Positions 1 to 62,900 of a DNA stretch of 64,000 bases are shown piece after piece. A model generated the notes under the pieces. The model was not told the origin of the DNA and did no database searches. It was given only the letters and a program-made list of their open reading frames with translations. Source of the DNA: Tribonema minus (lineage: Eukaryota; Sar; Xanthophyceae; Tribonematales; Tribonemataceae); contig JAFCMP010000065.1 in the NCBI GenBank assembly GCA_017506865.1, forward strand, positions 124,001 through 188,000, read 5' to 3'. The position numbers and the translations under genes are program-made. Positions within the stretch are counted from its first letter, which is position 1; the number at the start of each line of letters is the position of its first letter.

Positions 1-82
1 ACACAAACTCTTCCGGCCAGCAGCAGCGGACCGGTGGGAGTTTCCGCTTCCAGCTGCCCTTCCGCAGGAGGGGTGACTGCAA

Positions 83-9211: not shown

Positions 9212-12200
9212 CTCCCGGCTAAGGACATTGGGCGCAGTGCAGGGGGTGGACGCGGTGCATCAACGACACCGTGGTGCTCACCATCCTCGGTGAACTGGGA
9301 GCGCTTCCCCCTGGTTCTGCACACGGCTGGCACGGAGAGCCTCGAACTGTCTGTAGGCGCTCTTTGCCGCTGCAACGCTGCTGTGCAACTCCTTCATGCC
9401 TGTAATTACAACAGCAACAGGCAGACATAACAACGTCAGATCTAGCCATGGTTGCAGTCAAGCATGAGGCAACTGAAAGCTATCTGCTTCACATATAGTG
9501 CTTGCAGATGAACTAAACCAAAGCACATGCAGACATAATAACATCAGGTCCAGCTATGGAAACTGCCTAGTTTAATCCGACTGCAATGTACTTGCTGCAT
9601 ATATTGAGTGATTGCACATAGGGTGAATGACGGACTCTAGCAGAGTGTGACCGCACGGTACATTTACTGCTTACTGATGATGCTGCATATTGATGCTACA
9701 TGCAAACATGACAACACCGCATCTACCTGTCTAGCATGAGTTCGATTGCAAGGCCTCTTGCTATATTGAATGCTTTCAGACAGGACAGACACGCGCACAC
9801 AACAACAGCTACCATTAGCAAACAGAAGCTATTGACGTGACATGCAAGTTGTTGGACTCACTTGATAGAATGAAGTCCTGTGCCTCCCCCCACCTCCCCT
9901 CTGCACACATCTTGCGCGCCTTCGCAAAGATTTCCGTCACGGCAGTGGATCTGTTGCTGTAGGACGCGTAGTAGGGGATGCCCAGGTTGCTGCGGCCGAT
10001 CTCGTTGGGGACCTTCTCCCGAAAGGTGTTTTGGCTCACTTGATAGTTGGCACCGCCGCTGAGGCCGACTAAGCGGTCGGGTACTGGGGTTCCGAAGTGA
10101 ATGGCGCGCATTGCCCGGCACAGAAAGAGGACCGTCAGCATAGGCCTGTTGAGCTCCGATGGGACTGGCACACATGTCTTCATCGGCTCCGTGTCGTCAC
10201 CGCCACCGCTCATGGCGATCTTGCCGAGTTTAGCGTTCGCAATGTCCTGACATGAGAACGCAGCAAAGAGGCGTTGGTGATGACGTCAACTCACAGCAGG
10301 GGTATTAGAAGGTATGTTGCATCACTATTGTTGACACACGTTACACATCATCAAGTCGTGCTTAACATGCTTAGAGTGTGAGCTATGTTGCATCACAATT
10401 GTTGACACACATTATACATCATCAAGTCATGTTTAACATGCTTAGAGTGTGAGCTATGTTGCATCACAACTGTTGACACACAGTACACATCATATCAAGA
10501 CATGCTTAACATGCTTAGAGTGTGAGCTATGTTGCATCACAATTGTTGACACACGGTACACATCATATCAAGACATGCTTAGAGTGTGCGCGCATGCCTG
10601 GTGATAGGCATACCTGAAATAAGATGAAGGAAACACGGCCATCTGGGCCCGTTGTCATCTTGGCCCAGATTTGAGAGGCAAGATTGCTCATCAAAGCCTC
10701 GGGCCTGACAGGGAGCAGGTAGTAGGCGTACAGGTGGACGAGGATCTCGAGGTTGGCGACGTCGTACATGGTGAACTGCTCTGCCTCCAGCATGTGGTGT
10801 GCGAGTGTTGTGACCCAGCCGACCTCCAGATGCGCGCAGTCACCCTCCGTCTGGGCCATGTTGAAGCCGTCGGCGGGACGACGGTTCGCCAGACGCTCGA
10901 TGAGACCGTCAAAGTCCGCCATCTGACGGCCCTGCGCCTCCAGCCCGCGTTGAATGGCTCTCTCGAACGGCTTCCAGGTGCTCTTGATGAACCCTTCCAG
11001 CATGTCATGAATGAGGTACATGAGGTGCTCCGGAAGCATGCGGCCTTGCTCCACCTTGTGCTCGTGTGTCTGGCTGTATGCCTGCCACTTCTTCAGCTGT
11101 AAGCGGATATAGCACTGGAAGGGGGCCTGGCAAAGTAGCAGGAAAAGGTGCCACATGTATGACACACAACAAACACAATGACACTGTGGCACTGTCGGGG
11201 TGAACATGCGCAATGTAGGTTAGTGTAGATGTGCAGTGTACACGTGCACTGATGGTACAGTACAATGGTGAAGATGTGCGGCACAAGAAGTGTAGACGTG
11301 CAGCGTAGGGAAGTGTAGACATGCAGTGCAGAGCAGCATAGACGCTGTGCAGAATAGTGTAGACATGCAGTGTAGGGTGTCGCCGTGAATGACGAGTACT
11401 CATGTAGGGACAGCTTGAACCTACAGCAGACTGATCTGACCTACACGTTTGATCTTGAGCCGTGATCACTGGGCAATTTACAGAACTTCAAGTGCACACA
11501 AAAGTTCAGGTTGTAGCCCTGAGACCGGGAATGGCGACTGCTCATGTAGGGACAGCTTGAAATCCTCTTAGCCTAACCTCACCTGCACTTTCGATGAGGG
11601 ACCATATTTATTTGCAGCTTACGAAAATCTAGCGAGCGTCGTACCGGCCCAATTTAGCGTCAGCCTCTGAGAAATACTTTTTTTGACAGGCCCAGGATCA
11701 GGAACTTCAAGTTTCAGCATAAGTTCAAGTTTGTGTCATAAGGCTTGGATTGGCAAGTACTCATGTAGGGACAGCTTGAACCTGTAGCGGACTCATCTGA
11801 CCTACACTTTTGATCTTGAGCCATGATTACTGGGCAGTTTATGGAACTTCAAGTGCACACAAAGGTCAAGTTCAAGCCCTAAGACGGTAATGGCGAACGA
11901 CTGCTAATGCAGGAACAGCTTGAATCCCTCTTAGCCTGACCTCACCTACACTTGCGATCTATTGCATGTGTGCGGGCGAGCATTGAACTTGTATCGACAA
12001 TGACGAACGTAAGATGCAAAGGATATAGGTCCAGCATACGACTGTGCTATGTCTGTAAACGTCAAGGCAATGATGGCGCCAGCTGTTTGCCGTCAAAGTC
12101 AACTGAATAATTACACCTCCCATCCAGCAAAAGCATTATCGCCAGTGACACACCTTCAGTAACTGATCGTGTCAATCAAAGTGCAACTCACCTGATTCCG

Positions 12201-39515: not shown

Positions 39516-39539
39516 ACCCTAGACATCGATGCACACCAA

Positions 39540-39960
39540 TATGGCATTGCGCTTTTGTGGCTACGACGCTGCCGCCAGCACCACGCACCCATTGATTTGT
39601 GCCTCCAATGCCTGCAAGAATGTCTTTGGCGCTGTGTTGTCACAGGTTGATGCCGACGGCGTCGAGCAGCTGTTGCCTTCACCTCCCGCACACGCTGCTA
39701 ACGAGTGCAACTGGCCACTTTGGACTCGAGGCCGACGCTATAGTCACATTGGCAATGGCATCAAGAAGTTCCGCCACATGCTGTGGGGTACCCCCTTCAC
39801 GCTCTACACCGACCACCGCGCGCTGCCGTACATGGAGTGCGTCCGAGCGCGAGTGCTTGTGGCGAGGCTCAGCGCTAAGCTGAGTTACTATTGGCATTTG
39901 TCATCAATCTGGCTCACCGGGCATTTAAGCAGGGCAGCGCTCACGGCACCACTGACAGTC
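39540..39960 (+). mobile_element. Ty3/gypsy RNase H fossil
   Basis: The plus frame reads NVFGAVLSQVDADGVEQLLP, then GIKKFRHMLWGTPFTLYTDH and RALPYM, and GHLSRAAL. This is the order of the RNase H domain that follows reverse transcriptase in Ty3/gypsy elements (GAVLSQ, KKFRHYLWG, FTLYTDHRAL, LSR). The initial TDAS-type motif is degraded and no RT or integrase flanks it, so it is a fragment. Confidence 0.75.
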
Positions 39961-40171
39961 CATTGGCAAGCCGCAGTCCACTCGCAGCAACTTGAACAAT
40001 GCTGCGGGCGCCACCGAGGTGGCATGCTCCAGGCTTCTACATGCATATTACTAGTACTTCCGCAAAATCCTCGGATGCGAGCACCTGCGGGTAGACCCCA
40101 GGCAAGCCCATGCATCTACGTTGGACGGTGTGGCAGTTGCGCCGCTGCCGAGACTGACCCGGAGCAGCACA

Positions 40172-41548
40172 ATGGGTGTGCTGCCTGGCGAAAGTCGTGC
40201 TAGCGATAGCGGCGCAACGATGTCAAGCAACGATCGTGTGCCCAGCACACCTGGCAGTGCCGCGGCTGCTGTCGCAGCGGGCGCTCAGTCTAGCGAATGC
40301 CCCAGGGACCCGACGGGATCACACTGGCAAGGCTTGCTGGGGGTGGCTGGCGCACTCGCGCGCAGGGTACGTGCACTGGCCCTTGCCCCCAATCGGGCAC
40401 GCGTCACGGTGCTTTGCGCTTGGCCGACGGGTACCAAGCTTAGACCCTGCCGCACGTCACGCCGACTGCATATGCGGCCGGCGGCCAGCGACGTGCCAGC
40501 AACACAGACCCTGCTGGGCCGGACTCCCTGCGCACCGCTGGTGAGTCAGATGCATGACCTGACGGTCACGTTCAGCTTGCTCTCCCTCCGAGAAGAGGGT
40601 AATGACCTGGCAACGGTGTTTGACCAACTCTCCCTCAGGGAACCGGTCGTTGCCAGGTCGCCTCGCCAGCCAGCCGGGAAACGTGGTGAGTCACACGTAA
40701 CGCAGGCTGGTGATAACAGCACCCACGCAACAATGCCCGAGACAGCACCTGTCACGGCTATGGTTGCCAGTGGAAAGCGCAGTCGACGCAGAGGTAAACA
40801 CAGACGGCGGACGCAGGAGCGACAGGCCCAGTGCGACAATTCTCGTGCACCCCTGGCACCAGCCACCACACCGCCGAGGGGCGGTGCCTCTGCCCCCTCA
40901 GCACCAATATCCGGGCCGGCGAAGGTCACCACCGTGACGGTGGCGACCCGGATACCCTCAACCGTGTGCCATACAGTCACCGTGGAGGAGCAGCAAGACG
41001 CGCTGGCAAAAGCCACCAACTATGGTTTTTCCACTTGGCACACGGGCCTGCAGGCACTCCACAAACAGGCGCTTGGGGAAAACACAGCGACGCTAGCACG
41101 TGGTGGGGAGCTTCGCCCCGTGAGCAACGTGGGCAACGGCAACTGCCTGATTCATACAGCTCTACACGGCATAGGCAGCGTCGCAGTTGAGCACGGACTG
41201 CCGGCCCCAGCGCTGGTGATTGCCATGCGAGAGGCACTGCTGGACGGGATGGTGGCATACGTCACGCAGGGGGCGGGCAAACAAGGGGCCAGCATGTCAT
41301 CGATGCGTCAACTGACCGCGCATGCAGCAGCACAACCTGCGTGTACACGTGAACAAATCGACACGTACGGGACACGCGCTCGCTGCCTCGCAATCGAGTA
41401 CGGCACAAATGCAACGGACAGCGCGGACAGCGGGCACACGCTCCTGCTGCAACGCCTACAGGAAGAGGGCGTGTGGGGACGGCCCCTCGGTTTGTCTGTG
41501 TGGGCCATTGTTGCAGCGGTCTACGCGGTCTCGGTGACGGTGTGGTAG
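40172..41548 (+). CDS. Retroelement N-terminal part with OTU cysteine-protease core
   Basis: The ATG at 40172 (MGVLPGESRASDS) opens a low-complexity N-terminus. The stretch NVGNGNCLIHTALHG (Cys codon at 41,144-41,146) is the nucleophile block of OTU deubiquitinase-fold proteases (usually DGNCLF.A). LQRLQEEGVWGRPLGLSVWA follows, where OTU domains have a 'W....l..lA' block. The frame then meets TAG at 41,546-41,548, before the catalytic His. Confidence 0.7.
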   Translation: MGVLPGESRASDSGATMSSNDRVPSTPGSAAAAVAAGAQSSECPRDPTGSHWQGLLGVAGALARRVRALALAPNRARVTVLCAWPTGTKLRPCRTSRRLHMRPAASDVPATQTLLGRTPCAPLVSQMHDLTVTFSLLSLREEGNDLATVFDQLSLREPVVARSPRQPAGKRGESHVTQAGDNSTHATMPETAPVTAMVASGKRSRRRGKHRRRTQERQAQCDNSRAPLAPATTPPRGGASAPSAPISGPAKVTTVTVATRIPSTVCHTVTVEEQQDALAKATNYGFSTWHTGLQALHKQALGENTATLARGGELRPVSNVGNGNCLIHTALHGIGSVAVEHGLPAPALVIAMREALLDGMVAYVTQGAGKQGASMSSMRQLTAHAAAQPACTREQIDTYGTRARCLAIEYGTNATDSADSGHTLLLQRLQEEGVWGRPLGLSVWAIVAAVYAVSVTVW

Positions 41549-43003
41549 GCCGAGCCTCAGGCCACTGGCAGCACGCAAAAATCAACAGGGCTGGTGCTGG
41601 CACAACTGATGGGGCTGCCAGCGGTATTCGCACCGGCAACTCCAGCTCAGCCTGACTGCCATCTGGATGTGCTGTGGACGCCGCCTGGGCTATATACAAA
41701 TGTGGGACACTTTGAACTGCTTGTCGCCCCTGCGGCAGCTCCGCCCTTGCCAACCACTGTGACAGCGTCGGCGACCACTCAAGCTGACAGCACCCACATC
41801 ACGGCTCCGAGTCGGACACAGCCCCGTACTGCGCTGCAGTTGCCACAGCAGCCTGAGCCACTGAGATGTCCACTATGCACACTGGCATTTTGGCAGCTTG
41901 GTCAGAAAGAGGACAGCAAACAGCGAGGCAAACTGTCAGCTGCGAGCCGCATGGCACCGGTAGTGGCCCACTTCAACGGTGGTAGCTGCACGAGGTCGAT
42001 GCTGAACCCTGAGGCGAGCACATCACACTGTCAGCAAAATCCGGCGGCAGCAGACGCCAAGGGCATCCGGCAGCAGGTTGATCACGACCCATCCGGTGAC
42101 CGTGCCCCTTCAGGCAGCAGTACCTGCAACACTGGGGCACACCATGCCAAGCGTGTGCAGGAGATGAGCACCATGTATGGTTGCACGGCAGAAGACTTCC
42201 TACGGGCGGTAAGGAAGCTGAGTGCATGCACAGGTGCCTGCGGTCTGGTCCATATGTCAGCCAGCGCGGGGCAGAGGCAATGCGCGCTGACCTCGCCATG
42301 CCACACGTGTCGACGGAATGGAAGCGCCCCCACGCGCGCACGCCCGGCAGTACCCCCGGGCCAATCCGAGGGCGGGGGTGCGGGTAGCGACGGCGCAACC
42401 GCGGCGGCGGGGGCTGCCGCAGCGACACCTCCAAAGCCACCGGCGGTGCCGGCTAGTGGCGCTGCCAACTCAAAGTCCAGCAAGAAACGCCCGGCGGCCA
42501 CGGCAACCGGCGCGCAACGCCGGCGCCGAACGGCTGCCGCAGCTGCTGCGGCACCGCCTGGCAGCGCCGGCAGCCGCACTCAGTCTAACAGCCTAAGGCA
42601 GCCGCTGCAGGACAGCAGCCCCCCCCACGGGACGGCCGTGGGATGGGCTGACATGGACTTGGACCCGCCGGACGATGCCGCGTCACCGCCCCTGCCGACC
42701 ACCACCACCAGTGGCAGGCCCTCAAAGCCCCAGGCACGAGCATCCCTGGCTTGGGACCTCTCGACGCCCTCGGTCGTCCACGCACTTGACCAGACCAATG
42801 AGGCGGATCTACTGCTGCTACGGTTCACCACGACTGCCAACCCCTTCCGCACTCAGCTGCAGCGCACCCAGTGGGCACGGCTAGTGGAGCACGCCACACG
42901 ACTACTGGCGGACGCCACAGACAGACTGAGTGCACGTGGGCGGCACGGGTGCGCCTCCACCATGGTGCCGGGGCGTTTGCTCATCAGGTTTCTCAGACTC
43001 TAG
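41549..43003 (+). CDS. Retroelement middle part: OTU His block, zinc-binding region
   Basis: The same frame continues past the TAG. LYTNVGHFELLVAP (His codon 41,708-41,710) is the expected OTU catalytic His block (GH(Y/F)..L), so the TAG splits one domain. Then come LRCPLCTLAFW...H and CALTSPCHTCRR, likely zinc-binding, and a long Ala/Pro-rich linker. The final part (WARLVEHATRLLADATDRLS) leads into the RT region but slips out of frame near 42,950-42,980. Confidence 0.65.
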   Translation, partial: AEPQATGSTQKSTGLVLAQLMGLPAVFAPATPAQPDCHLDVLWTPPGLYTNVGHFELLVAPAAAPPLPTTVTASATTQADSTHITAPSRTQPRTALQLPQQPEPLRCPLCTLAFWQLGQKEDSKQRGKLSAASRMAPVVAHFNGGSCTRSMLNPEASTSHCQQNPAAADAKGIRQQVDHDPSGDRAPSGSSTCNTGAHHAKRVQEMSTMYGCTAEDFLRAVRKLSACTGACGLVHMSASAGQRQCALTSPCHTCRRNGSAPTRARPAVPPGQSEGGGAGSDGATAAAGAAAATPPKPPAVPASGAANSKSSKKRPAATATGAQRRRRTAAAAAAAPPGSAGSRTQSNSLRQPLQDSSPPHGTAVGWADMDLDPPDDAASPPLPTTTTSGRPSKPQARASLAWDLSTPSVVHALDQTNEADLLLLRFTTTANPFRTQLQRTQWARLVEHATRLLADATDRLSARGRHGCASTMVPGRLLIRFLRL

Positions 43004-45582
43004 TGCAGCGCGGCTACAGGCTGCTGCACCTGCTAGCAGCAATGGCCTTTGGTAGGCAACCGGAGGGAACCGGTATGCCGCCTGCGGCCCGGCTGGCAGC
43101 GTTGCTGTCTGGCGACTTTGCGGAGCTACTGAGAAAGACGCTGTCAGCAGCAGCGGCGCTGCGGGCCCCCAAACCAAACAACGCAGCTACGGCGTCGGCA
43201 CAAACGAACTTCGATGCCGACTGGACGGAGGCTGACTCCAGGCAGCAAACAGCATGCGCTGCCCTCTCAGGCAAGCGACGGGGGGTAGGCCTGGCTGCCG
43301 CACGACTAGAGGCGCGTGAAGCATGCGCCCCAGCAGACGAGGTCACGGCACAGGTGCTGGCAGCAAAGCACCCTGAAACTGGCACCCGGCCCGGGGTAGT
43401 CGATACGCCAATGGAGCAAGTGCGCGGCCTGGTACGCGACGCCCGGCGGCACTGCTTGCACGGCGCAGGGGTGGCAACGACCGCCGGGCCCGCTGGCAGC
43501 GGCAGTCCCGTCTTCGAATCGGGTCAGGCGCATGATCGCAGCGATAGGCCTGAGGATGCTGCCAGCGCAGCCGGACGGCGCCTCGAGGTGGAGGCGACAG
43601 ACATACTGTCGACCTTGTCCGCAGCAGGGGCGGGGAAGGCAGGAGGGCTGGACGGCCTACGCTATGAACACCTCTTGATGGCCGCTGGGCCTGGTGCACC
43701 AGTGAAAGCAGCCACCCGCCCCGTGGGCAGTGCCTCGCCAGGACTAGCTGGTGATTCAGAATCGGATGTGATGGAACCGGCATTCGCCCATCACCTGGCC
43801 AAGGTGTTCACGACGCTGCTTGTTGAGCCCGAACTGCTGCCGGAGCAATCGCAACGGCTTCTCCGCGCCGCGGCCCTCTCAGGCATAGGACAGAAGCGGC
43901 GTCCGATCGCCTGCTCCAGTGTCTGGCGCAGACTCCTCGGGTCCACAGCGGCACGGAGTGTCAAGGGCAAAATATCGGGGCTGCTGGCCTCCATGTCGCA
44001 GTTTGGCGTAGGATACCGGTCTGGCGTCGAGCATGTGGCAGCGCGCGCGCGCGTGTGGCACGAGCTGTATGGCACCACAATCCAGCTGGACTGTGAGAAC
44101 GCATTTAACAGTGTGGATCGCGCCGCCATTGTGCGGGGACTTATGCTCTTCTGTCCGGAGCTGCTCCCGCACTTTGAGTCCGTATACTGTGGTGACACTG
44201 CCCCAGAGATGCGAGTGGAGGTGAACGGTGAAGCTCGCATTATCTGCTCCCACCTAGGGTGCCAGCAAGGGGACCCTCTAGGGCCGCTGTACTTTGCAGT
44301 GGCAGCGGCCTTCCTACTCTTCTACCCTGATGGAGTGAATGCGACGCCCGGCAGTATGCCGGCCTACGGCCACAGCACAGCGGAACCGCCAGCCCCGCAC
44401 TGCGCTTTCCTGGATGACCTCAACGTGCTGCAAGCTGCCTACTTCGACGATGCAGCGGCCGCTGGGGTGGCAGAGGTGATCCGTCGGCTTGCGGCAGGGG
44501 GCCTACGCGTTCGACCAGACAAGTCGCTGGCCATCGCCATGCGCGGCACAGTGTTTGATGAAGCGGCCAGAGCACGCCTGCGCGCCCTTGACATACCGTT
44601 TGTGGACGCCACCATGCCAGAATCCAGTCAGGGCTTTACGTCGGTCGGGGTACCGGTAGGGCACCCAGCCTATGTGCATGCTGCCATGAGCAAGCATCTT
44701 GTTGACGCAGGGACATGGCGATTGTCGTGGCAGCTAGCTGGAATGGCGCGGCATCACCTACAGGCAGCACAGTTCATTCTGCGCAGGTCACTGACGAAGC
44801 GCATGGGCTTCTTAGCTCGGGTCGTTGACACGGCTTTGAGTGAGACATGGCTGCACGCATTTGACGGGTTCTGTGCATGGACGCTTGAACGCATGCTGCA
44901 CCTGCACGGCTGCGCTACCGCGGCAGTCATGAAGTCACACCTGCTGGCCGCCTGCACTGCTGGTGACAATGAGGAAGCCAGCAGTGGCAGCGTGCTGGTA
45001 TTGCCGCGCTTGGGCCCGCCAGAACTCACGGACATCGCAGTGCCACTGCGGGCGTCACGGTTGCCGGAGCGACGAGGCGGTCTGGGCATGCCGCTTTTGG
45101 GGCTACTGGCACCAGCCGCATACACGGCCCAGGCATGCACAACACTGCGGCCTGCAATAATTCATGCCACTGTGGCAGCAGGGGCCCTGAGGCTCGGCAC
45201 TGACGAACACGGCGCAGTCACCTGGTTCGCGCAGCACTCATGCGCAATACGCGAGGACCAGGGACTGCCGCCAATCATCGAGGCCGTGCGACGCTCTACG
45301 CGAGCGCTGACAGCTGATGGCGGCGAAAAATCACGCACAGCTGTGGCCGAGCAGCTCCCAGCATCGTTGCTACGGTGGGCAGCAGATACAACGGCCGCAG
45401 CGTCGACGCTCCCCACTGCGGTGCAAGCGATCTACGCCGCAACTGCCGTCACGGAGACGGGGACCACTGAGCCAGCCCCACACACCCACGGCATTGTGCC
45501 TGGCGCCGAGGCGGCCGCTGCGGCGGCGACCGTACCTGGCCCTCAAGCCGCTGCCGCGGCTGCCTCTTCCACCGCCCGCTAA
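42871..45582 (+). CDS. Retroelement reverse transcriptase
   Basis: From about 42,960 the frame is coherent with the preceding part. RT motifs in order: GKAGGLDGLRYEHLL, KRRPIACSSVWRRLLG, motif A LDCENAFNSVDR (about 44,087-44,122), motif B GCQQGDPLGPLYFA (about 44,260), motif C FLDD (about 44,407, with Phe in place of the first residue of YxDD) and GGLRVRPDKSLAI. The thumb region (TSVGVPVGHPAYV) and a long C-terminal helical part follow, ending in an Ala-rich run and TAA. The open frame upstream of about 42,950 is probably not translated. Confidence 0.85.
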   Translation: MGTASGARHTTTGGRHRQTECTWAARVRLHHGAGAFAHQVSQTLVQRGYRLLHLLAAMAFGRQPEGTGMPPAARLAALLSGDFAELLRKTLSAAAALRAPKPNNAATASAQTNFDADWTEADSRQQTACAALSGKRRGVGLAAARLEAREACAPADEVTAQVLAAKHPETGTRPGVVDTPMEQVRGLVRDARRHCLHGAGVATTAGPAGSGSPVFESGQAHDRSDRPEDAASAAGRRLEVEATDILSTLSAAGAGKAGGLDGLRYEHLLMAAGPGAPVKAATRPVGSASPGLAGDSESDVMEPAFAHHLAKVFTTLLVEPELLPEQSQRLLRAAALSGIGQKRRPIACSSVWRRLLGSTAARSVKGKISGLLASMSQFGVGYRSGVEHVAARARVWHELYGTTIQLDCENAFNSVDRAAIVRGLMLFCPELLPHFESVYCGDTAPEMRVEVNGEARIICSHLGCQQGDPLGPLYFAVAAAFLLFYPDGVNATPGSMPAYGHSTAEPPAPHCAFLDDLNVLQAAYFDDAAAAGVAEVIRRLAAGGLRVRPDKSLAIAMRGTVFDEAARARLRALDIPFVDATMPESSQGFTSVGVPVGHPAYVHAAMSKHLVDAGTWRLSWQLAGMARHHLQAAQFILRRSLTKRMGFLARVVDTALSETWLHAFDGFCAWTLERMLHLHGCATAAVMKSHLLAACTAGDNEEASSGSVLVLPRLGPPELTDIAVPLRASRLPERRGGLGMPLLGLLAPAAYTAQACTTLRPAIIHATVAAGALRLGTDEHGAVTWFAQHSCAIREDQGLPPIIEAVRRSTRALTADGGEKSRTAVAEQLPASLLRWAADTTAAASTLPTAVQAIYAATAVTETGTTEPAPHTHGIVPGAEAAAAAATVPGPQAAAAAASSTAR

Positions 45583-45589
45583 AACACAA

Positions 45590-46753
45590 ACTAGCGCGGA
45601 AGAAAGCAGCTGCAGCGGCGGGCAGGAGGACGACGACGACGACTGGGAGGCCTATGCTGACGAGATCTGCAGGAAGGTAGTGCCCCGCCGCCGGCGCGGT
45701 CACTTCACGCACGGACTACAAGCCGGCCTTTCAAATGTTCTTCGAAGTCAATACGAGGACTGCCTGGTGGAGGACCTAGAGGCTGCCTCGGCTGGTGCCG
45801 TGGGCAAGCCGACGCAGGCTACACTTATTGGTGACTCACGTGACACCAGTCGCCGCCGCCAACAGGCTAGCGCGCGGGTCCTGGCGCAGCTGCGCAGCCA
45901 GCGTGCGTCCGGGGCAATGGCGTGGATGAGCGTGCCGTCCGCTGCCAATGACCGCCCGGGTGCGGCGCCCATGTCCAGTATGGCAGCAGCCACGATGATT
46001 TTGGTTGCGATCTTTATAGACGGGTGGGGCATACAGGGCGAGGTGTGCCCATGGCGGTGCAGTGACGTGAGCCCCACCTCCACGCATGCGATCAGCTGCC
46101 CCAGCCAGCACATACGGGGGCATAACGCGACACACACTGCCCAAAAGCGGTGCCTACAGCGCATCTTGAGACAGCACTATGTCTCTATTGTCCGCAATGA
46201 GGACGCTAGCGTCTTCAAGGTACCGGGGTATCGGGCGGACACAGTCATTGACCCAGGGTGTCTGCACTGTAGCAGTGCATACCGTAACAAGGGAATAGTG
46301 CTAGACACAAGTGTGCGCGCGCCCACAGCGAGCTCGTACCTGACAGGCAAAACAAATGCCTCGAACACGGACGGCTATGCTGCTGGGGTGGGGGAGGACG
46401 CGAAGGTCAAGCACCACACCGGCACCTTGACGTCATCTTGGGCTTTTGTGCCATTCGTGCAGGAGTCGTACGGACGGCTGGGCAAGCAGACAAGCCTTTT
46501 TGTTAAGGAGTTGGCAATGCACTCAGCACTGTGCTCAGGGGGGGGGGAGGCAGATGTGTTACGCAAGGCCGGGTTAGCTAAGCGTCAGATCCACATTGAG
46601 CTGAGCATATCGCTGGCGCGGGAGTTGGCGGAGCGCGTCATGGCATACACACGTGGAGCGCGAATGCTGGGCTGTGTTGCGGCGCCGGTATTCACTCCTA
46701 GGGCACAGCGCAGACTAGGCTGCTGCGTTGACGCAAGCTTTTCGATTGCATAG
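45590..46753 (+). CDS. Retroelement CCHC finger and restriction-like endonuclease
   Basis: An acidic linker (QEDDDDDWEAYADEICRK) leads to CPWRCSDVSPTSTHAISC (C-x3-C-x8-H-x3-C), the finger placed between RT and endonuclease in RLE elements. The endonuclease core follows: GYRADTVID, GIVLDTSV, then the Lys of AKVKHH and FVPFVQESYGRLG. This matches the R-PD-D-K pattern of RLE domains. The tail ARELAERVMAYTRGARMLGC is shared with the fossils at 1.7-1.9 kb. Ends TAG. Confidence 0.75.
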   Translation, partial: TSAEESSCSGGQEDDDDDWEAYADEICRKVVPRRRRGHFTHGLQAGLSNVLRSQYEDCLVEDLEAASAGAVGKPTQATLIGDSRDTSRRRQQASARVLAQLRSQRASGAMAWMSVPSAANDRPGAAPMSSMAAATMILVAIFIDGWGIQGEVCPWRCSDVSPTSTHAISCPSQHIRGHNATHTAQKRCLQRILRQHYVSIVRNEDASVFKVPGYRADTVIDPGCLHCSSAYRNKGIVLDTSVRAPTASSYLTGKTNASNTDGYAAGVGEDAKVKHHTGTLTSSWAFVPFVQESYGRLGKQTSLFVKELAMHSALCSGGGEADVLRKAGLAKRQIHIELSISLARELAERVMAYTRGARMLGCVAAPVFTPRAQRRLGCCVDASFSIA

Positions 46754-47719: not shown

Positions 47720-47980
47720 TGAGATGGGATTAGGGCTAGTAAGGCGAGGGTTAGAGTTAGGGCAAGGGTCAGCACTAGGGGTAGAGGTTGGGCTAGGGTT
47801 ACGATGAGGGCAGGGGATTTCTAGTAGAATTAGGGCTAGGATGAGGGTTAAGGTCAAGGCTAGGGTGTTTTTAGGCTAGGGTGGGATAAGGCCTCAGGGT
47901 TGAGCATGAAAAAAGTTTTGCCCATAGGGTTAGGGTTAGGGATAGGGTTAGGGTTAGGGATAGGGTTAGGATTAGGTTCA
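47720..47980 (+). repeat. Interstitial telomere-like repeat (TTAGGG)n, degenerate
   Basis: A G-rich stretch of TAGGGTTAGGG, GATAGGG, GTTAGGATTAGG and similar units. The best part (about 47,925-47,975) has consecutive TTAGGG and ATAGGG units. Confidence 0.9.
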
Positions 47981-48148: not shown

Positions 48149-48219
48149 TGAGTACTGCCGGAATCGAACCAGCGGCCTCTGCTTGGAAAGCAGAGATGTT
48201 GCCATTACACCAAGTACCC
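48149..48219 (-). tRNA. tRNA-Gly (anticodon UCC)
   Basis: A full cloverleaf reads on the minus strand. The acceptor GGGTACT pairs with AGTACTC (one G.U) and the discriminator base is A. The D stem GTGT pairs with ACAT and the D loop has GG. The anticodon stem TCTGC/GCAGA has the 7-nt loop TTTCCAA, so the anticodon is UCC. The T stem GCTGG pairs with CCGGC around TTCGATT. Box A (TGGTGTAATGG) and box B (GGTTCGATTCC) are intact and a T4 terminator follows. No intron. It is the only complete copy in a locus full of derived fragments. Confidence 0.93.
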
Positions 48220-51200
48220 CAGATTTTTTGTAATACTCTCCCTGCTCCCCACGCCTCTCTGACGCGCGTCTGCTGCGAGTAGTACAGCACTAGTACTACT
48301 AGCGGTAAAGTGAATATAGTATCTCACCAGCGGCCTCTGCTTGTGAAAGCAGAGATGAGCCATTACACCAAGTACCCCAATCTTTTCTGCATCGCAACGA
48401 CCATGCCCTTTTGACTCATGTGTCGTCTCCGACCCTGAGGTCACTGACAGTTTTCTGCTGCCACCATCATGATGGCACTGGCACTCGGCTGACGGCTGCC
48501 TTGGAGTCGGTGGATGCAAGGCCTTCACTAGCTCAGTAGTACTACAAGCTTGGTGACACTGACGAGGGCCCTGTACGATGCTGTAGACATATCTGGGCAA
48601 TGCGCTAGACTATTACTTCTAGTAGGTAGGTACTGTAAGATACTACTGATAGCACCGCCTGGCCACTCAGCGGCGGCCCAGGCTGCTATGCGCAGTCACA
48701 GGGCGCTGCCATCTCGCCAGCGGCCTCTGCCTGGAAAAGCAGAGATGAGCCATTACACCAAGTACCCCAATCCTCTTTTCTGCATCACAATGACCATGCC
48801 CTTGTGACTCATGTGTCGTCTCCGACCCTGAGGTCACTGACAGTTTTCTGCTGCCACCATCATGATGGCACTGGCACTCGGCTGACGGCTGCCTTGGAGT
48901 CGGTGGATGCAAGGCCTTCACTAGCTCAGTAGTACTACAAGCTTGGTGACACTGACGAGGGCCCTGTACGATGCTGTAGACATATCTGGGCAATGCGCTA
49001 GACTATTACTTCTAGTAGGTAGGTACTGTAAGATACTACTGATAGCACCGCCTGGCCACTCAGCGACGGCCCAGGCTGCTATGCGCAGTCACAGGGCGCT
49101 GCCATCTCGCCAGCGGCCTCTGCTTGGAAAAGCAGAGATGAGCCATGACACCAAGTACCCTATTAATTTTTTACTACTCTCCCTTCTCCCCACGCCTCTC
49201 TGGCAGCGCTGACAGGTGGCAGTCAACCTCACTGACATCATATGATACTAGTAGGATCAGGCTGCTCCGTCATGGTGGCCTCCACGGTGACCTGTCAGTG
49301 AGTGATTTCAGCTGGCAGCGCACTGCACGGTGACTGCAGCTGCTGCCAGTAGCCCCGCTGACTCCCAGCCTGGGCTGGCACGCCCCGGGCCCGGCAACTG
49401 GGAGCTCAGTCACTGGTGCCGCCACTGTGACAGCATGATGTGGACTCCACACCAGCCTCAGGCTGAGGTGCGGGCAGTCACTGTGCTCCTACTAGTTGTG
49501 GTCTCATCTCACCAGCGGCCTCTGCTTGGAAAAGCAGAGATGAGCCATTACACCAAGTACCCCAGATTTTTTTTAATACTCTCCCTGCTCCCCACGCCTC
49601 TCTGACGCGCGTCTGCAGCGCTGACAGCCCAGCTGTGGCAGTCAACCTCGTGCTCACTGACAGGCAGCTGCTCCGTCATGGCGGCCTCGGAGTCCACCTG
49701 TCAGTGAGTGATTCAAGCGGGCAGTGCGGCACTGCACCGCAGCAGCCAGCAGCCCCACTGAGAGGCTGACACACCCCTGCAACTGGGAGCTCAGTCACTG
49801 GCGCCGCCGCAGCATGCTGTCCACACCAGGTGCGGGTAGTACAGCACTAGTACTACTAGCAGTAAAGTAAATATAGTATCTCACCAGCGGCCTCTGCTTG
49901 TGAAAGCAGAGATGAGCCATTACACCAAGTACCCCAATCCTCTTTTCTGCATCACAATGACCATGCCCTTGTGACTCATGTGTCGTCTCCGACCCTGAGG
50001 TCACTGACAGTTTTCTGCTGCCACCATCATGATGGCACTGGCACTCGGCTGACGGCTGCCTTGGAGTCGGTGGATGCAAGGCCTTCACTAGCTCAGTAGT
50101 ACTACAAGCTTGGTGACACTGACGAGGGCCCTGTACGATGCTGTAGACATATCTGGGCAATGCGGTAGACTATTACTTCTAGTAGGTAGGTACTGTAAGA
50201 TACTACTGATAGCACCGCCTGGCCACTCAGCGACGGCCCAGGCTGCTATGCGCAGTCACAGGGCGCTGCCATCTCGCCAGCGGCCTCTGCTTGGAAAAGC
50301 AGAGATGAGCCATGACACCAAGTACCCTATTAATTTTTTACTACTCTCCCTTCTCCCCACGCCTCTCTGGCAGCGCTGACAGGTGGCAGTCAACCTCACT
50401 GACATCATATGATACTAGTAGGATCAGGCTGCTCCGTCATGGTGGCCTCCACGGTGACCTGTCAGTGAGTGATTTCAGCTGGCAGCGCACTGCACGGTGA
50501 CTGCAGCTGCTGCCAGTAGCCCCGCTGACTCCCAGCCTGGGCTGGCACGCCCCGGGCCCGGCAACTGGGAGCTCAGTCACTGGTGCCGCCACTGTGACAG
50601 CATGATGTGGACTCCACACCAGCCTCAGGCTGAGGTGCGGGCAGTCACTGTGCTCCTACTAGTTGTGGTCTCATCTCACCAGCGGCCTCTGCTTGGAAAA
50701 GCAGAGATGAGCCATTACACCAAGTACCCCAGATTTTTTTTAATACTCTCCCTGCTCCCCACGCCTCTCTGACGCGCGTCTGCAGCGCTGACAGCCCAGC
50801 TGTGGCAGTCAACCTCGTGCTCACTGACAGGCAGCTGCTCCGTCATGGCGGCCTCGGAGTCCACCTGTCAGTGAGTGATTCAAGCGGGCAGTGCGGCACT
50901 GCACCGCAGCAGCCAGCAGCCCCTCTGAGAGGCTGACACACCCCTGCAACTGGGAGCTCAGTCACTGGCGCCGCCGCAGCATGCTGTCCACACCAGGTGC
51001 GGGTAGTACAGCACTACTACTACTAGCAGTAAAGTAAATATAGTATCTCACCAGCGGCCTCTGCTTGTGAAAGCAGAGATGAGCCATTACACCAAGTACC
51101 CCAATCCTCTTTTCTGCATCACAATGACCATGCCCTTGTGACTCATGTGTCGTCTCCGACCCTGAGGTCACTGACAGTTTTCTGCTGCCACCATCATGAT

Positions 51201-54200
51201 GGCACTGGCACTCGGCTGACGGCTGCCTTGGAGTCGGTGGATGCAAGGCCTTCACTAGCTCAGTAGTACTACAAGCTTGGTGACACTGACGAGGGCCCTG
51301 TACGATGCTGTAGACATATCTGGGCAATGCGCTAGACTATTACTTCTAGTAGGTAGGTACTGTAAGATACTACTGATAGCACCGCCTGGCCACTCAGCGA
51401 CGGCCCAGGCTGCTATGCGCAGTCACAGGGCGCTGCCATCTCGCCAGCGGCCTCTGCTTGGAAAAGCAGAGATGAGCCATGACACCAAGTACCCTATTAA
51501 TTTTTTACTACTCTCCCTTCTCCCCACGCCTCTCTGGCAGCGCTGACAGGTGGCAGTCAACCTCACTGACATCATATGATACTAGTAGGATCAGGCTGCT
51601 CCGTCATGGTGGCCTCCACGGTGACCTGTCAGTGAGTGATTTCAGCTGGCAGCGCACTGCACGGTGACTGCAGCTGCTGCCAGTAGCCCCGCTGACTCCC
51701 AGCCTGGGCTGGCACGCCCCGGGCCCGGCAACTGGGAGCTCAGTCACTGGTGCCGCCACTGTGACAGCATGATGTGGACTCCACACCAGCCTCAGGCTGA
51801 GGTGCGGGCAGTCACTGTGCTCCTACTAGTTGTGGTCTCATCTCACCAGCGGCCTCTGCTTGGAAAAGCAGAGATGAGCCATTACACCAAGTACCCCAGA
51901 TTTTTTTTAATACTCTCCCTGCTCCCCACGCCTCTCTGACGCGCGTCTGCAGCGCTGACAGCCCAGCTGTGGCAGTCAACCTCGTGCTCACTGACAGGCA
52001 GCTGCTCCGTCATGGCGGCCTCGGAGTCCACCTGTCAGTGAGTGATTCAAGCGGGCAGTGCGGCACTGCACCGCAGCAGCCAGCAGCCCCACTGAGAGGC
52101 TGACACACCCCTGCAACTGGGAGCTCAGTCACTGGCGCCGCCGCAGCATGCTGTCCACACCAGGTGCGGGTAGTACAGCACTAGTACTACTAGCAGTAAA
52201 GTAAATATAGTATCTCACCAGCGGCCTCTGCTTGTGAAAGCAGAGATGAGCCATTACACCAAGTACCCCAATCCTCTTTTCTGCATCACAATGACCATGC
52301 CCTTGTGACTCATGTGTCGTTCTCCGACCCTGAGGTCACTGACAGTTTTCTGCTGCCACCATCATGATGGCACTGGCACTCGGCTGACGGCTGCCTTGGA
52401 GTCGGTGGATGCAAGGCCTTCACTAGCTCAGTAGTACTACAAGCTTGGTGACACTGACGAGGGCCCTGTACGATGCTGTAGACATATCTGGGCAATGCGC
52501 TAGACTATTACTTCTAGTAGGTAGGTACTGTAACATACTACTGATAGCACCGCCTGGCCACTCAGCAACGGCCCAGGCTGCTATGCGCAGTCACAGGGCG
52601 CTGCCATCTCGCCAACGGCCTCTGCTTGGAAAAGCAGAGATGAGCCATGACACCAAGTACCCTATTAATTTTTTACTACTCTCCCTTCTCCCCACGCCTC
52701 TCTGGCAGCGCTGACAGGTGGCAGTCAACCTCACTGACATCACATGATACTAGTAGGATCAGGCTGCTCCGTCATGGTGGCCTCCACGGTGACCTGTCAG
52801 TGAGTGATTTCAGCTGGCAGCGCACTGCACGGTGACTGCAGCTGCTGCCAGTAGCCCCGCTGACTCCCAGCCTGGGCTGGCACGCCCCGGGCCCGGCAAC
52901 TGGGAGCTCAGTCACTGGTGCCGCCACTGTGACAGCATGATGTGGACTCCACACCAGCCTCAGGCTGAGGTGCGGGCAGTCACTGTGCTCCTACTAGTTG
53001 TGGTATCATCTCACCAGCGGCCTCTGCTTGGAAAAGCAGAGATGAGCCATTACACCAAGTACCCCAGATTTTTTTTTATACTCTCCCTGCTCCCCACGCC
53101 TCTCTGACGCGCGTCTGCTGCGGGTAGTACAGCACTAGTACTACTAGCGGTAAAGTGAATATAGTATCTCACCAGCGGCCTCTGCTTGTGAAAGCAGAGA
53201 TGAGCCATTACACCAAGTACCCCAATCTTTTCTGCATCGCAACGACCATGCCCTTTTGACTCATGTGTCGTCTCCGACCCTGAGGTCACTGACAGTTTTC
53301 TGCTGCCACCATCATGATGGCACTGGCACTCGGCTGACGGCTGCCTTGGAGTCGGTGGATGCAAGGCCTTCACTAGCTCAGTAGTACTACAAGCTTGGTG
53401 ACACTGACGAGGGCCCTGTACGATGCTGTAGACATATCTGGGCAATGCGCTAGACTATTACTTCTAGTAGGTAGGTACTGTAACATACTACTGATAGCAC
53501 CGCCTGGCCACTCAGCGGCGGCCCAGGCTGCTATGCGCAGTCACAGGGCGCTGCCATCTCGCCAGCGGCCTCTGCCTGGAAAAGCAGAGATGAGCCATTA
53601 CACCAAATACCCTATTAATTTTTTACTACTCTCCCTTCTCCCCACGCCTCTCTGGCAGCGCTTACAGGTGGCAGTCAACCTCACTGACATCATATGATAC
53701 TAGTAGTATCAGGCTGCTCCGTCATGGTGGCCTCCACGGTGACCTGTCAGTGAGTGATTTCAGCTGGCAGCGCACTGCACGGTGACTGCAGCTGCTGCCA
53801 GTAGCCCCGCTGACTCCCAGCCTGGGCTGGCACGCCCCGGGCCCGGCAACTGGGAGCTCAGTCACTGGTGCCGCCACTGTGACAGCATGATGTGGACTCC
53901 ACACCAGCCTCAGGCTGAGGTGCGGGCAGTCACTGTGCTCCTACTAGTTGTGGTCTCATCTCACCAGCGGCCTCTGCTTGGAAAAGCAGAGATGAGCCAT
54001 TACACCAAGTACCCCAGATTTTTTTTAATACTCTCCCTGCTCCCCACGCCTCTCTGACGCGCGTCTGCAGCGCTGACAGCTCAGCTGTGGCAGTCAACCT
54101 TGTGCTCACTGACAGGCAGCTGCTCCGTCATGGCGGCCTCGGAGTCCACCTGTCAGTGAGTGATTCAAGCGGGCAGCGCACCGCACTGCAGCACTGCCAG

Positions 54201-54760
54201 CCAGCGGCCTACTTCTAGTAGTAGGCTCACTGAGAGGCCGCAAACCACATTGAAAAAAGGCATTGGTCACTGTCATTTGTGTGAAGAAGACAAGCATGTC
54301 TGCCTTCTAAGGTGTAGTTTGTTGGGGGTGGTTTGGGGGGTATTCAATGGGGGTAATCCTCTTTTCTGCATCACAATGACCATCCCCTTGACTCATGTGT
54401 CGTCTCCGACCCTGAGGTCACTGACAGTGTTGTGCTGCCACCATGATGGCACTGGCACTCGGCTGACGGCTGCCTTGGAGTTGGTGGATGCAAGGCCTTC
54501 ACTAGCTCAGTAGTACTACAAGCTTGGTGACACTGACGAGGGCCCTGTACGATGCTGTAGACATATCTGGGCAATGCGCTAGACTATTACTTCTAGTAGG
54601 TAGGCACTGCGTGTGCAGTTCATTACAAGTATCCCTTTAATTTGTAACACTCTCCCTGCTCCTCCCCATGCCTCTCTGACGCCCGTTTCTAGCTGACAGG
54701 TGGCAGTCGACCCCGCTAGCAGGCTGCTTCGTGGCCTCCACCTGCATTGGCAGTGCACCG
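48220..54760 (-). repeat. Higher-order tandem repeat (1,167 bp) carrying 16 truncated tRNA-Gly copies
   Basis: Units of about 390 bp (A), 400 bp (B) and 373 bp (C) are arranged A-B-C with a period of 1,166-1,168 bp. Each is headed by a tRNA-Gly-like segment on the minus strand. Segments end at about 48377, 48767, 49160, 49563, 49933, 50327, 50729, 51101, 51494, 51896, 52268, 52662, 53063, 53223, 53622 and 54014. Each keeps the acceptor 5' strand, box A and anticodon arm but has an 8-nt anticodon loop (TTTTCCAA or TTTCACAA). All break at GCTGGTGAGAT, losing box B, the T arm and the 3' acceptor strand. Unit bodies share CTCTCCCT...CCCCACGCCTCTCTG. The array ends in a truncated A unit (54,355-54,606) and a B/C-like remnant. 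The short frames in it repeat with the DNA and are not genes. Confidence 0.92.
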
Positions 54761-59900: not shown

Positions 59901-62900
59901 GGGGTAAACAGCAATGTAAGGCTCTGGCTTCAGTCGATGTCGCACCACCAGTGTCACCAACAAGGCACAAATTGGTGGTACACATGTACTTAAAACCTGA
60001 CATCGTGTGCAAGCAGGGTTTGTTGGTGTGTGAGGACCAATCGTGCTCCCTCTTTGTAAACCCAGTTGCTGGTATATACAGGGCGGGCACACATGTAAAG
60101 TTGAAGTTTGAAATGGGAGAGTTGAAACCGACATCAGTGGAAACAGGAGAGTTGAAAATTGACATTCAGTGCAGATCCGACAAGCGCCACACGCCGCTGT
60201 CATGCACACAGACACATTGACCGCATACCTACCGTCGGCATCCGCACGCACACACCTTGGCGCCCCCGTCCCCGCTCATGTTGTTGAAGAAGTGAAGTTG
60301 CGTCAGCCGCGTCGGCACGTCACCCGCCACCAGCAGGTCCCGCACCGCCTCCATGGCGCTGGCGGACAGGCCGTCGTTGCACATGCGCAGCGCCGACAGC
60401 GTCTCCCGCTGCCCCTCCAACGCCGCTCTGTGTGGCATGGCAGCGCAGAGGGGATGAGGGAGTTGAACGTGAAGTTTGTATGTGGCAACTTCAACGTTGC
60501 ACATGCGCAGCGCCGACAGAGTGTCCCACTGCCCTTCCAGTGCCGCTCTGTTCGGCACGACAGCGCAGACAGGATAGGGGGTTGAAACGTGACCTTGTGG
60601 CAACCTCAACGTTGCACATGCGCAGCGCCGACAGGGTCTCTCACTGCCCGTCCAGTGCCGCTCTGTGCGATACGGCAGCGCACAAAAGTGAAGGGGGTTG
60701 AACGTGAAGTTTGCCTGTGACAACTTCACTTTTGGTTGGTGTGAGTTTCAGCTTCTGCGTGGTGGCCGATGTGCCCATGGCGGCGGCGCAGACTGGTAGA
60801 GGACTTGAGAACATGACAGACCTGTCCACACTAAAGAGCTTACCCTTCTGCAGCGTGTCTGTGAGCTGCAGTGCAACAGAGTGTAGGCGGTTAAACCGAC
60901 AGGTAATTGCAGATGACCTGCGGTGCTTCATGACAAAGCCGCACAGTACCTCGGAAGTGCAAAGCTGCGCTTCACTGCTCGACAGACGGCAACACCAGTG
61001 CTGCTACAGCGGTGACACATCTTGCTCTCTGCTACATAGTCATAATTGAAATTATTGAATGACTGGTCACAACAACGTACCTAAGTGCGAGCTTTGCCGC
61101 GCATCTGGTGCAGTGCATATTTCATCTGCAGATTGTTATTTACCGCAAAGTGATTAAACTGCTGATGACATTCATGTGTGAAGGCCACAAAGAGACAGAA
61201 ACACTGCAGCACAAATACGACTGACTAGACTATGCACTCTCTGGCTGGATACTACCAAACACAACAACAGCCATGTCTTGGACACATGGCTGTCATTTTG
61301 CACCTGAAAGATTTAGCAAGCGGCTCACAGCTCAGGCAGCGTTTCATCGGCCAACTCACGCTTCGTTTTCTTCAAATCGTCTGCTCGTCCGCCTCGTATT
61401 GCCTGCATAGCAGCTGTACTTCAGCTGCAGATTATGAGTTGTGGCGTGGCTTCAACACGCTTTTTTCCGCCTTCCATGTGCCACACTATGGTGTATCCTC
61501 ACCTGCACGCATTCACCCCCTTCTCCCCCATGGCGTTGTCGCTGACGTCAATCAGCGACAGCGATCGACCCGCAAGCCCCCCGCATATGGCCGCCAGCAC
61601 CCGCAGCGCCATGTCCTCCGGCCGCCCCGCGATGACGTCGCTGATGTCCGCCTCCGTCACACTCGTCATCTTGGAGAGAGCCTGCAACAGTCGCAGTGTG
61701 CGCATAAACGGAAGGTTCGGACTGTCCACATACTACTTGAGCGAGTCATTATGTGCATGAGTAGCACATCCTTAGATTAGTACGCGCAGCGTCATGTCCT
61801 CCGGCCGCCCCGCAATGACGTCGCTGATGTGCGCCTCTGTTACACATGTCATCTTGGAGAGAGCCTGCAGTGGTTGCAGTGTCCACATACACAGAAAGTT
61901 TAGGCCAGCCACAGTTTGCTTTGGCAAGGCATTCTGTGCACGAGTAGCACATTATTAGGTAATGATTGCTTGCGCTTGCACGTGGTCGCAGTGTGCGCAT
62001 AGACAGAAGGCTCAGACTGGCCACCCTTTGCTGCGGCGAACCATTCTGTGCATGACTGGCATTGTTTCAGATGTTGAAAGCACGTGCTTCCGGCACGCTT
62101 GCCGTCGTTCCTGAAGCCTGAAATGAATGCAGTGCCTTACATGGGTAAGTACAGTGCCTTCCATCGGTGAATTTCTGAGGTCTGGCTGCTGCTCCTGGCC
62201 ATGCATGCAGAACCTTGTTCGTAAAGTGAGTGTGACAGCCAAAATGGGCACTTAATGAGCTCTACGTAGGCAGGTCGCGCTGTTGTGCTGTCAGATGAGC
62301 TCTGCATAGGCCTGTCGCGCTGTTGTGCTGTATCTGTTCACTGCCAGCCTGGCATTGCGGGGACTGTTGAAGTGTGTACTTAGGCAGCATGTGAATACAT
62401 GCATGAATATATGTATCGTGCAATGCACGTCCCTAGATCTGCAGGCCTTTCCCATTTGATTTGTGATGCGCACGAATTGTGTCAGAGACTGGCAGAGCAG
62501 GAGCAGGACATACCAAGCGGCGAGAAACAAAGACTAGCGCGCTACTGTTCAATAACCCTGCCGCTAAAATTTACAAACAAAAGGCTACATGATGAAAGTA
62601 CTGCTGATGGAAAACGTGCCGCGCATTTGCTCCACTTTGCGACATGACTGTTGCGCAGGAAAGTGGGTTGTCACTTATCGCAAAATCTTCAAGTTCTTCA
62701 GCGCGAACCATCAAATAATGGTGCTCGCTGACCAGGACTCGAGTACATCATGTCCTTACCTCTGCTATTGCTCCTGCTGCGCCTTCATCATAAGACTTGT
62801 TGGACAAGCAGATGCGAGTAATAGCCGTGTGGTCTCGGCCTGCCAGCGCCTTATCGACCAGTGCCTGAGCTGCTTCGGCTCCATTGACCAGCTCTCGCTT

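What the first reader, a model, noticed from the sequence alone, without database searches (positions are those of the whole stretch)
48149..54760. tRNA-Gly gene seeded a 1,167-bp higher-order satellite with 16 clones of a truncated tRNA
One intact tRNA-Gly(UCC) lies at the edge of an array in which every unit of about 390 bp is headed by the same tRNA 5' half plus anticodon arm. Three unit types alternate A-B-C with a period of 1,166-1,168 bp, like centromeric higher-order repeats. The tRNA part is well conserved across units while the bodies differ, so it is either the recombination register or under selection. I know of no described satellite with this architecture.
Basis: partly seen in the sequence, partly recalled or inferred. 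Interest (0 to 1): 0.85.

Follow-up and report, generated by a model that had tools for sequence, protein, structure and literature searches.

The report
Pseudo-tRNA repeat arrays upstream of tRNAs
In a yellow-green alga, several tRNA genes are preceded by rows of repeats that each begin with a damaged copy of the front half of that same gene, a recurring pattern that may have arisen by repeated partial copying of the genes and may help the cell load its tRNA-making machinery.

Summary
The window comes from Tribonema minus (inferred from protein matches). One intact tRNA-Gly(UCC) ends an upstream array of 16 truncated tRNA heads; units run B-A-C with a 1,167-bp period, with one extra A and two shortened C units. 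It is not a genome-wide satellite: matching units were found at two loci, each with an intact tRNA-Gly(UCC). Nor is it unique. Of 55 tRNA loci examined, 8 (5 of 25 anticodons: Gly-UCC, Phe-GAA, Arg-CCG, Gln-UUG, Gln-CUG) carry tandem repeats headed by the 5' part of their own gene. All 55 full heads found lie upstream on the gene's strand; no 3'-only counterpart was seen beside the 30 genes where it was tested. In one head per family, nt 1-28 differ from the gene in 2 of 140 columns, nt 29-56 in 55 of 151; no head has a B box above background. In diverged Phe and Gly arrays, and between the two Arg arrays, heads change less than bodies; in Gln-CUG they do not. Best reading: one-sided tandem duplication, unequal exchange, and possibly constraint on the A-box-bearing head (a Pol III "spacer promoter"-like role). 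Structure is shown; origin and function are inferred.

The parts
48149..48219 (-). intact tRNA-Gly(UCC) gene at the 3' end of the array
   Evidence: ARAGORN, Rfam RF00005 57 bits; a 100% identical 71-nt copy on contig C301
48221..48320 (-). 5' flank of the intact gene = short C-type body (100 bp), shared with 53066-53165
   Evidence: 97% over 100 bp
48321..48378 (-). truncated tRNA head 1
48711..48768 (-). truncated tRNA head 2
49104..49160 (-). truncated tRNA head 3
49506..49563 (-). truncated tRNA head 4
49878..49935 (-). truncated tRNA head 5
50271..50327 (-). truncated tRNA head 6
50673..50730 (-). truncated tRNA head 7
51045..51102 (-). truncated tRNA head 8
51438..51494 (-). truncated tRNA head 9
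51840..51897 (-). truncated tRNA head 10
52212..52269 (-). truncated tRNA head 11
52606..52662 (-). truncated tRNA head 12
53008..53065 (-). truncated tRNA head 13
53166..53223 (-). truncated tRNA head 14
53556..53612 (-). truncated tRNA head 15
53958..54015 (-). truncated tRNA head 16
49104..52605 (-). three complete higher-order copies (1167, 1167, 1168 bp), 3-5 differences between any two
54016..54760 (-). distal edge: part of a C-type body, a headless A-body piece (54355-54609, 96%) and, by eye, a decayed head at about 54617-54631 with matching flank

Best explanation
This is one of a class of upstream arrays at tRNA genes of Tribonema minus. SHOWN: at 8 of 55 tRNA loci examined (5 of 25 anticodons) the intact gene stands at the end of same-strand tandem repeats whose units are headed by the gene's own 5' part; heads resemble the gene closely in nt 1-28 (A box included), are altered from the anticodon loop on, and have no recognisable B box or 3' acceptor strand. 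SHOWN for Phe and Gly, and between the proximal and distal Arg arrays: heads have fewer changes than bodies. INFERRED (about 0.7): each array began as a one-sided tandem duplication of [5' flank + tRNA nt 1 to about 56], with the gene-internal break near the T-loop/B box, then grew by unequal exchange, which also made the higher-order order. INFERRED (about 0.4): heads persist because an A-box-bearing, B-box-dead module is useful, acting like the spacer promoters of rDNA: it helps load Pol III factors next to a low-copy tRNA gene without making rival tRNAs.
For: Same architecture in five tRNA families. Of 30 genes searched 1,400 bp on both sides (29 with full flanks), 4 have 5'-only copies upstream, 0 have 5'-only copies downstream and 0 have 3'-only copies on either side; the other hits are three overlapping stretches of one tandem array of full-length Arg-TCT genes. 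Head versus own gene, one head chosen per family: 2/140 changed columns in nt 1-28 against 55/151 in nt 29-56, p=4e-16; over all 55 full heads 27 are unchanged in nt 1-28, all 18 Gly heads carry at least their shared D-loop change, and 10 others have 1-2 changes. A-box score of the head equals the gene's in 9 of 10 heads scored. Best B-box score among 55 heads, nt 29-85, is -0.5; own genes 16.6-19.3, background 95% point 0.4. Heads against bodies: Phe 3/58 v 96/242 (p=3e-8), its altered part nt 33-58 alone 1/26 v 96/242 (p=7e-5), so copying from the intact gene does not explain it; Gly 2/58 v 63/272 and 3/58 v 53/272; Arg distal v proximal 0/58 v 14/85 (p=4e-4). Both intact Gly-UCC genes and both intact Phe-GAA genes found have arrays.
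Against: Gln-CUG heads are no less variable than their bodies (4/28 v 10/182, p=0.98); inside young arrays (Phe C45 p=0.52, Arg distal p=0.09 for nt 1-30) heads are not clearly special, and in the Arg distal array nt 31-58 are the most variable part (9/28 sites). The -30..-1 flank, which should hold the start site, is not clearly conserved (Phe p=0.12), and the distal Arg units lack the last bases of the gene's flank. A head without a B box should bind TFIIIC poorly (recalled knowledge). No depletion of Pol III terminators in eight non-redundant units: 3 T-runs seen, 0.76 expected. A head at the distal edge seems to have decayed. 47 of the 55 loci show no such array within the stretch examined. 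In Gln and Arg the end of the head past nt 31 cannot be aligned with confidence, so a common break at the B box is shown only for Gly and Phe. No expression data exist here. Fisher tests treat sites as independent and related units as one sample.
Confidence: 0.5

Rival explanations
1. Purely mutational: forks or repair synthesis moving into a Pol III gene stall at the factor-bound B box, the strand re-anneals upstream and copies again; the array is neutral, and heads stay alike only because the longest identical block is the preferred site of exchange or short-tract conversion between units.
For: Explains upstream-only placement, the break near the T-loop in Gly and Phe, the higher-order copies with 3-5 differences, the 4-unit order in the Arg distal array, and the lack of head conservation in Gln-CUG. 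tRNA genes are called known replication fork barriers in the abstract of PMC6733944 (listing) and are linked to fragile sites in a passage of PMC2888827.
Against: The conserved block coincides with the tRNA-derived part in Gly, Phe and Arg rather than with an arbitrary stretch, and is kept between different contigs. In all five families nt 1-28 are close to the gene while nt 29-56 are altered.
Confidence: 0.4
2. The heads are sources of 5' tRNA-half-like small RNAs; nt 1-28..32 is about the length of a 5' half (recalled).
For: The best-kept part ends at the anticodon arm in Phe, Arg and both Gln families.
Against: Gly heads differ from the gene inside the D loop. Three Gly heads fold no better than shuffles (z 0.60, 0.17, -1.00). 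No RNA data.
Confidence: 0.08
3. A SINE or other mobile element with a tRNA-derived head that became tandem.
For: tRNA-derived 5' end and repeated body.
Against: No dispersed copies in searches that score best candidates only: Gly units on C65 and C301 alone, and 5'-end-bearing partial copies of Phe, Arg and Gln-UUG only within 8.4 kb upstream of an intact gene of the same kind. Heads match the neighbouring gene; no B box in 55 heads. The DNA between the C301 array and its gene matches none of the other loci held.
Confidence: 0.04
4. Assembly artefact.
For: Near-identical copies are hard to assemble; no reads were available here.
Against: The same design with different bodies and periods on eight contigs (C65, C301, C45, C535, C90, C551, C75, C1), with 17-35% body divergence between diverged units of Arg, Phe and Gly, cannot come from one assembly error. 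Copy numbers may still be off.
Confidence: 0.03

Closest known systems
Entamoeba tRNA gene arrays (named in passages of PMC2888827)
   Same: Tandem units containing tRNA sequence; function said there to be unclear
   Different: There the passages speak of tandem arrangements of tRNA genes; here one intact gene ends an array of truncated, altered heads
Spacer promoters and promoter-derived repeats upstream of rRNA genes (Pol I; recalled, not looked up)
   Same: Tandem copies of the promoter plus the first transcribed bases, upstream of the gene
   Different: Pol III gene with an internal promoter; only the A-box half is kept; no transcription shown
5S rDNA- or other gene-derived satellites (recalled, not looked up)
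   Same: A small Pol III gene or part of it seeds a tandem repeat
   Different: Here arrays lie upstream of the intact gene, one-sided, and recur at five tRNA families
tRNA-derived SINEs (recalled)
   Same: tRNA-derived head with non-tRNA body
   Different: No dispersed copies found, no B box, each head matches its own neighbouring gene
Centromeric higher-order satellites (recalled)
   Same: Multi-type units in a longer repeating order with near-identical higher-order copies
   Different: A few kilobases beside one gene; no genome-wide abundance found

Membership tests
Entamoeba-type tRNA gene array | units contain intact tRNA genes | tested here: not met
   one ARAGORN tRNA in the 64-kb window; heads lack T-arm 3' part and acceptor strand
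tRNA-derived SINE | dispersed copies in the genome | tested here: not met
   Gly units only on C65 and C301; the search scores best candidates only
tRNA-derived SINE | A and B boxes of a Pol III type 2 promoter | tested here: not met
   A box kept in 9 of 10 heads; best B-box score of 55 heads -0.5, below the background 95% point
tRNA-derived SINE | target-site duplications and 3' tail | not tested
   units are tandem, no single insertion to test
Higher-order satellite | multimeric period with near-identical copies | tested here: met
   1,167-bp copies with 3-5 differences
Higher-order satellite | abundant in the genome | tested here: not met
   two loci found in 158 Mb
Higher-order satellite | centromeric or heterochromatic position | not testable with these tools
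   no chromatin or centromere data
Spacer-promoter array (Pol I rDNA type, as an analogue) | tandem copies of the 5' promoter region upstream of the gene | tested here: met
   8 of 55 loci, 5 families, A box kept
Spacer-promoter array (Pol I rDNA type, as an analogue) | start-site flank conserved in the copies | tested here: inconclusive
   29/30 in one Gly comparison, not significant in Phe, last bases missing in distal Arg units
Spacer-promoter array (Pol I rDNA type, as an analogue) | binds the polymerase machinery and enhances the gene | not testable with these tools
   no ChIP or RNA data

The most novel reading that the evidence does not exclude
tRNA genes of this alga carry a Pol III counterpart of rDNA spacer promoters: arrays of A-box-only pseudo-tRNA modules, built from the gene itself and kept by selection, that load Pol III factors beside low-copy tRNA genes.
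Probability: 0.3. Interest if true: 0.82.

Novelty: new variant of a known kind. Interest (0 to 1): 0.62.

Why it matters
tRNA genes are mostly treated as self-contained units with an internal promoter. A genome in which several tRNA families carry one-sided arrays of their own 5' half gives a natural experiment on how Pol III genes break, duplicate and might be regulated from outside. The arrays also show which half of a tRNA gene persists when only part is copied (A box yes, B box no). Scanners that look for whole tRNAs can miss such heads (ARAGORN reported none of the 16 here), so the pattern may be overlooked elsewhere.

Tried and rejected
Terminator avoidance on the sense strand looked striking by eye but is not borne out: 3 T-runs seen against 0.76 expected from dinucleotide shuffles of eight units. 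A special RNA fold of the heads is not supported (three heads). Telomere-like GGGTTAGG near some arrays is not special: 9 of 30 tRNA loci have it. A shared mobile element filling the 4.6-7.7-kb gaps between proximal and distal heads was considered; the C301 gap, the only one fetched, matches none of the other loci held, and 7 of the 19 listed ORFs of at least 100 aa in its part on L012 gave no Pfam family. An exact 30-base piece of the head was not found in viral contigs. Window ORFs were scanned for Pfam families to learn the surroundings: of 29 ORFs only the retroelement ones gave a match over the cut-off.

Literature: six searches for arrays of this kind showed none in the parts of their listings that were printed (one search found no paper; the others printed 3 to 20 titles out of 3 to 72). 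I saw listings only, and passages of PMC2888827. The genome paper of Tribonema minus, looked up by a recalled DOI, is not held. One literature search was left unused.

The tRNA sample is no full census: the Rfam search scored 63 of 2,861 first-look candidates and did not list the two Gly-UCC genes. Its 60 hits were all examined: 50 (all with an ARAGORN tRNA; three of them are neighbours in one C274 array) and 10, of which 7 were dropped for lack of an ARAGORN tRNA. L073-L106 had about 700 bp upstream and 60 bp downstream, so the two-sided test rests on L034-L063. A 16-nt copy 27 bp upstream of a Val-GAC gene and a flank-only copy at the third Gln-CUG gene were not counted. Genome-wide, partial matches without the 5' end also exist away from the arrays: Phe nt 20-69 on C535:300485, 78 kb from the gene; Gln-CUG nt 8-51 on C1, 3 kb upstream of a gene; Arg nt 37-71 on C29 and several Arg-like copies covering nt 9-73 to 21-72 elsewhere. 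My first B-box scan started at nt 41 and would have missed a shifted box in Gln-CUG; it was repeated from nt 29 on all 55 heads.

Full report
Setting. The window is contig C65:124001-188000 of a 158-Mb, 554-contig eukaryotic genome. A reverse transcriptase in the window matches proteins of Tribonema minus (Xanthophyceae), and two of those proteins sit on contigs of 576,709 and 186,273 bases, the lengths of C551 and C136 here, so I take the genome to be T. minus.

Observation. The array is as described. An intact tRNA-Gly(UCC) at 48149-48219 on the minus strand is followed upstream by 16 truncated heads up to 54015. On the tRNA strand the units run B (403 bp), A (392), C (372), total 1,167, with one extra A and two short C units of 158 bp; three full higher-order copies differ by 3-5 positions. 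One short C body is the intact gene's own 5' flank and is 97% like the other one, so the gene's flank is itself a piece of the array. B and C bodies are about 70% alike over 274 bp; A showed no match to them. The distal edge holds a headless A piece and, by eye, a decayed head.

What the heads are. The heads share a D-loop change with a 1-nt deletion, an 8-nt anticodon loop and a T-arm that breaks off in the T-loop. They are therefore one altered lineage, not repeated copies of the present gene.

A second Gly locus. Contig C301 has the only other intact tRNA-Gly(UCC) found, 100% identical over 71 nt, with a B-type body directly upstream (92% over 207 bp) and, 7.5 kb further upstream on the same strand, two full heads and one cut head with A- and C-type bodies. 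Between the loci the aligned bodies are 78-81% alike in the best BLAST matches and roughly 40-87% by segment, with many gaps, while heads show 2/58 and 3/58 variable sites against 63/272 and 53/272 in bodies (p=1e-4 and 4e-3).

The pattern is general. I tested other tRNA genes of the genome for copies of their own ends. Of 55 loci (50, 3, plus C65 and C301), 8 have upstream tandem heads. Gly-UCC: 2 of 2 intact genes found. Phe-GAA: 2 of 2; C45 has nine heads, eight of the nine intervals down to the gene being 331 bp; C535 has two heads near the gene and one 8.4 kb upstream. Arg-CCG: 1 of 3, the other two tested over 700 bp only; 14 heads of 140-143 bp units lie 5.5-7.4 kb upstream, with a 4-unit order present twice, and one full and one partial head lie next to the gene. 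Gln-UUG: the one gene found, with heads at -134, -268 and 4.9 kb upstream. Gln-CUG: 2 of 3, with five and two heads in the 1.5 kb seen, period about 275. All 55 full heads (18 Gly, 12 Phe, 15 Arg, 7 Gln-CUG, 3 Gln-UUG) are on the gene's strand and upstream of it.

Direction. In 30 loci with 1.4 kb searched on both sides (29 complete), 5'-only copies occur upstream in 4 (three families) and downstream in 0; 3'-only copies occur in 0 on either side. The remaining hits are full-length tandem Arg-TCT genes on C274, seen through three overlapping stretches. Away from the genes, a few partial matches without the 5' end exist (listed under Tried and rejected).

What is kept and what is lost. Aligning one chosen head per family to its gene, nt 1-28 differ in 2 of 140 columns, nt 29-56 in 55 of 151 (p=4e-16). 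Over all 55 heads, 27 are unchanged in nt 1-28; the 18 Gly heads carry their shared D-loop change (five of them two further changed columns), and 4 Phe, 2 Arg and 4 Gln-CUG heads have 1-2 changes. The anticodon arm is altered in all five families; in Gly and Phe the sequence can be followed to the T-loop, in Gln and Arg the alignment past nt 31 is uncertain. A-box scores equal those of the genes in 9 of 10 heads scored, the exception being a Gly A-type head. The best B-box score of any of 55 heads is -0.5, against 16.6-19.3 in their genes and a background 95% point of 0.4.

Conservation. In diverged arrays heads change less than bodies: Phe, four units from two contigs, 3/58 v 96/242 (p=3e-8), and for its altered segment nt 33-58 alone 1/26 v 96/242 (p=7e-5), which speaks against copying from the intact gene; Arg, one distal unit v the proximal unit, 0/58 v 14/85 (p=4e-4). 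In young arrays there is no clear signal (Phe C45 p=0.52; Arg distal nt 1-30 p=0.09, with nt 31-58 the most variable part) and in Gln-CUG none (p=0.98). Gln-UUG was not tested. The tests treat sites as independent.

Reading. Origin: a one-sided tandem duplication that takes the 5' flank and the gene up to about the B box, in five families, followed by unequal exchange. This accounts for place, strand, the intact gene at the end, and the higher-order copies. Why the break should fall near the B box is inference, and the break itself is clear only in Gly and Phe; a factor-bound B box as an obstacle to replication or repair synthesis is one candidate, and tRNA genes are called known replication fork barriers in the abstract of PMC6733944 (listing). 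Maintenance: either constraint on an A-box module, with an rDNA spacer-promoter-like role, or preferential exchange within the longest identical block. The first explains why the kept block is the tRNA-derived part in Gly, Phe and Arg; the second explains Gln-CUG and the weakly conserved flank. I cannot separate them here.

Novelty. Six literature searches listed nothing of this kind in what was printed. The survey of eukaryotic tRNA organisation PMC2888827 (passages) works with genes and pseudogenes found by tRNAscan-SE; whether that program sees such heads was not tested here. Earlier description outside the held library cannot be excluded.

Noticed in passing
window 39529-46753: Retroelement with RNase H-like (PF17917) and reverse transcriptase (PF00078) domains on the plus strand, close to the array; two T. 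minus proteins match 98-99% over 16-18% of the RT query.
   Followed up: partly
window 47925-47976: Interstitial TTAGGG-like repeat about 170 bp downstream of the tRNA; the motif GGGTTAGG occurs at 9 of 30 tRNA loci.
   Followed up: yes
L073 (G000:C379:477377-477448): tRNA with anticodon UUA (would read UAA), bacterial/plastid Gln-like in appearance (by eye, recalled); possible suppressor or organelle-derived copy.
   Followed up: no
G000:C274:23842-25723 (L042, L043, L051): Three full-length tRNA-Arg(UCU) genes in tandem with a 903-906-bp period, an ordinary tandem gene array.
   Followed up: no
L049 and L061 (G000:C51): Inverted pair of tRNA-Val(GAC) genes 9 kb apart with nearly identical 5' flanks but unlike 3' flanks; one shows no T-run in the 30 bases after the gene.
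   Followed up: no
L093 1-330 (G000:C45:323400-323730): AT-rich stretch with organelle-like tRNA fragments (by eye) just beyond the distal end of the Phe array.
   Followed up: no
L032 (G000:C13:412243-412304): Solo degenerate tRNA-Gly copy with anticodon arm and T-arm but a poor 5' end.
   Followed up: no
window 10313-10581, 60375-60728, 61602-61952: Other tandem repeats (71, 115-120 and 183 bp units), not examined for any tie to tRNA genes.
   Followed up: no
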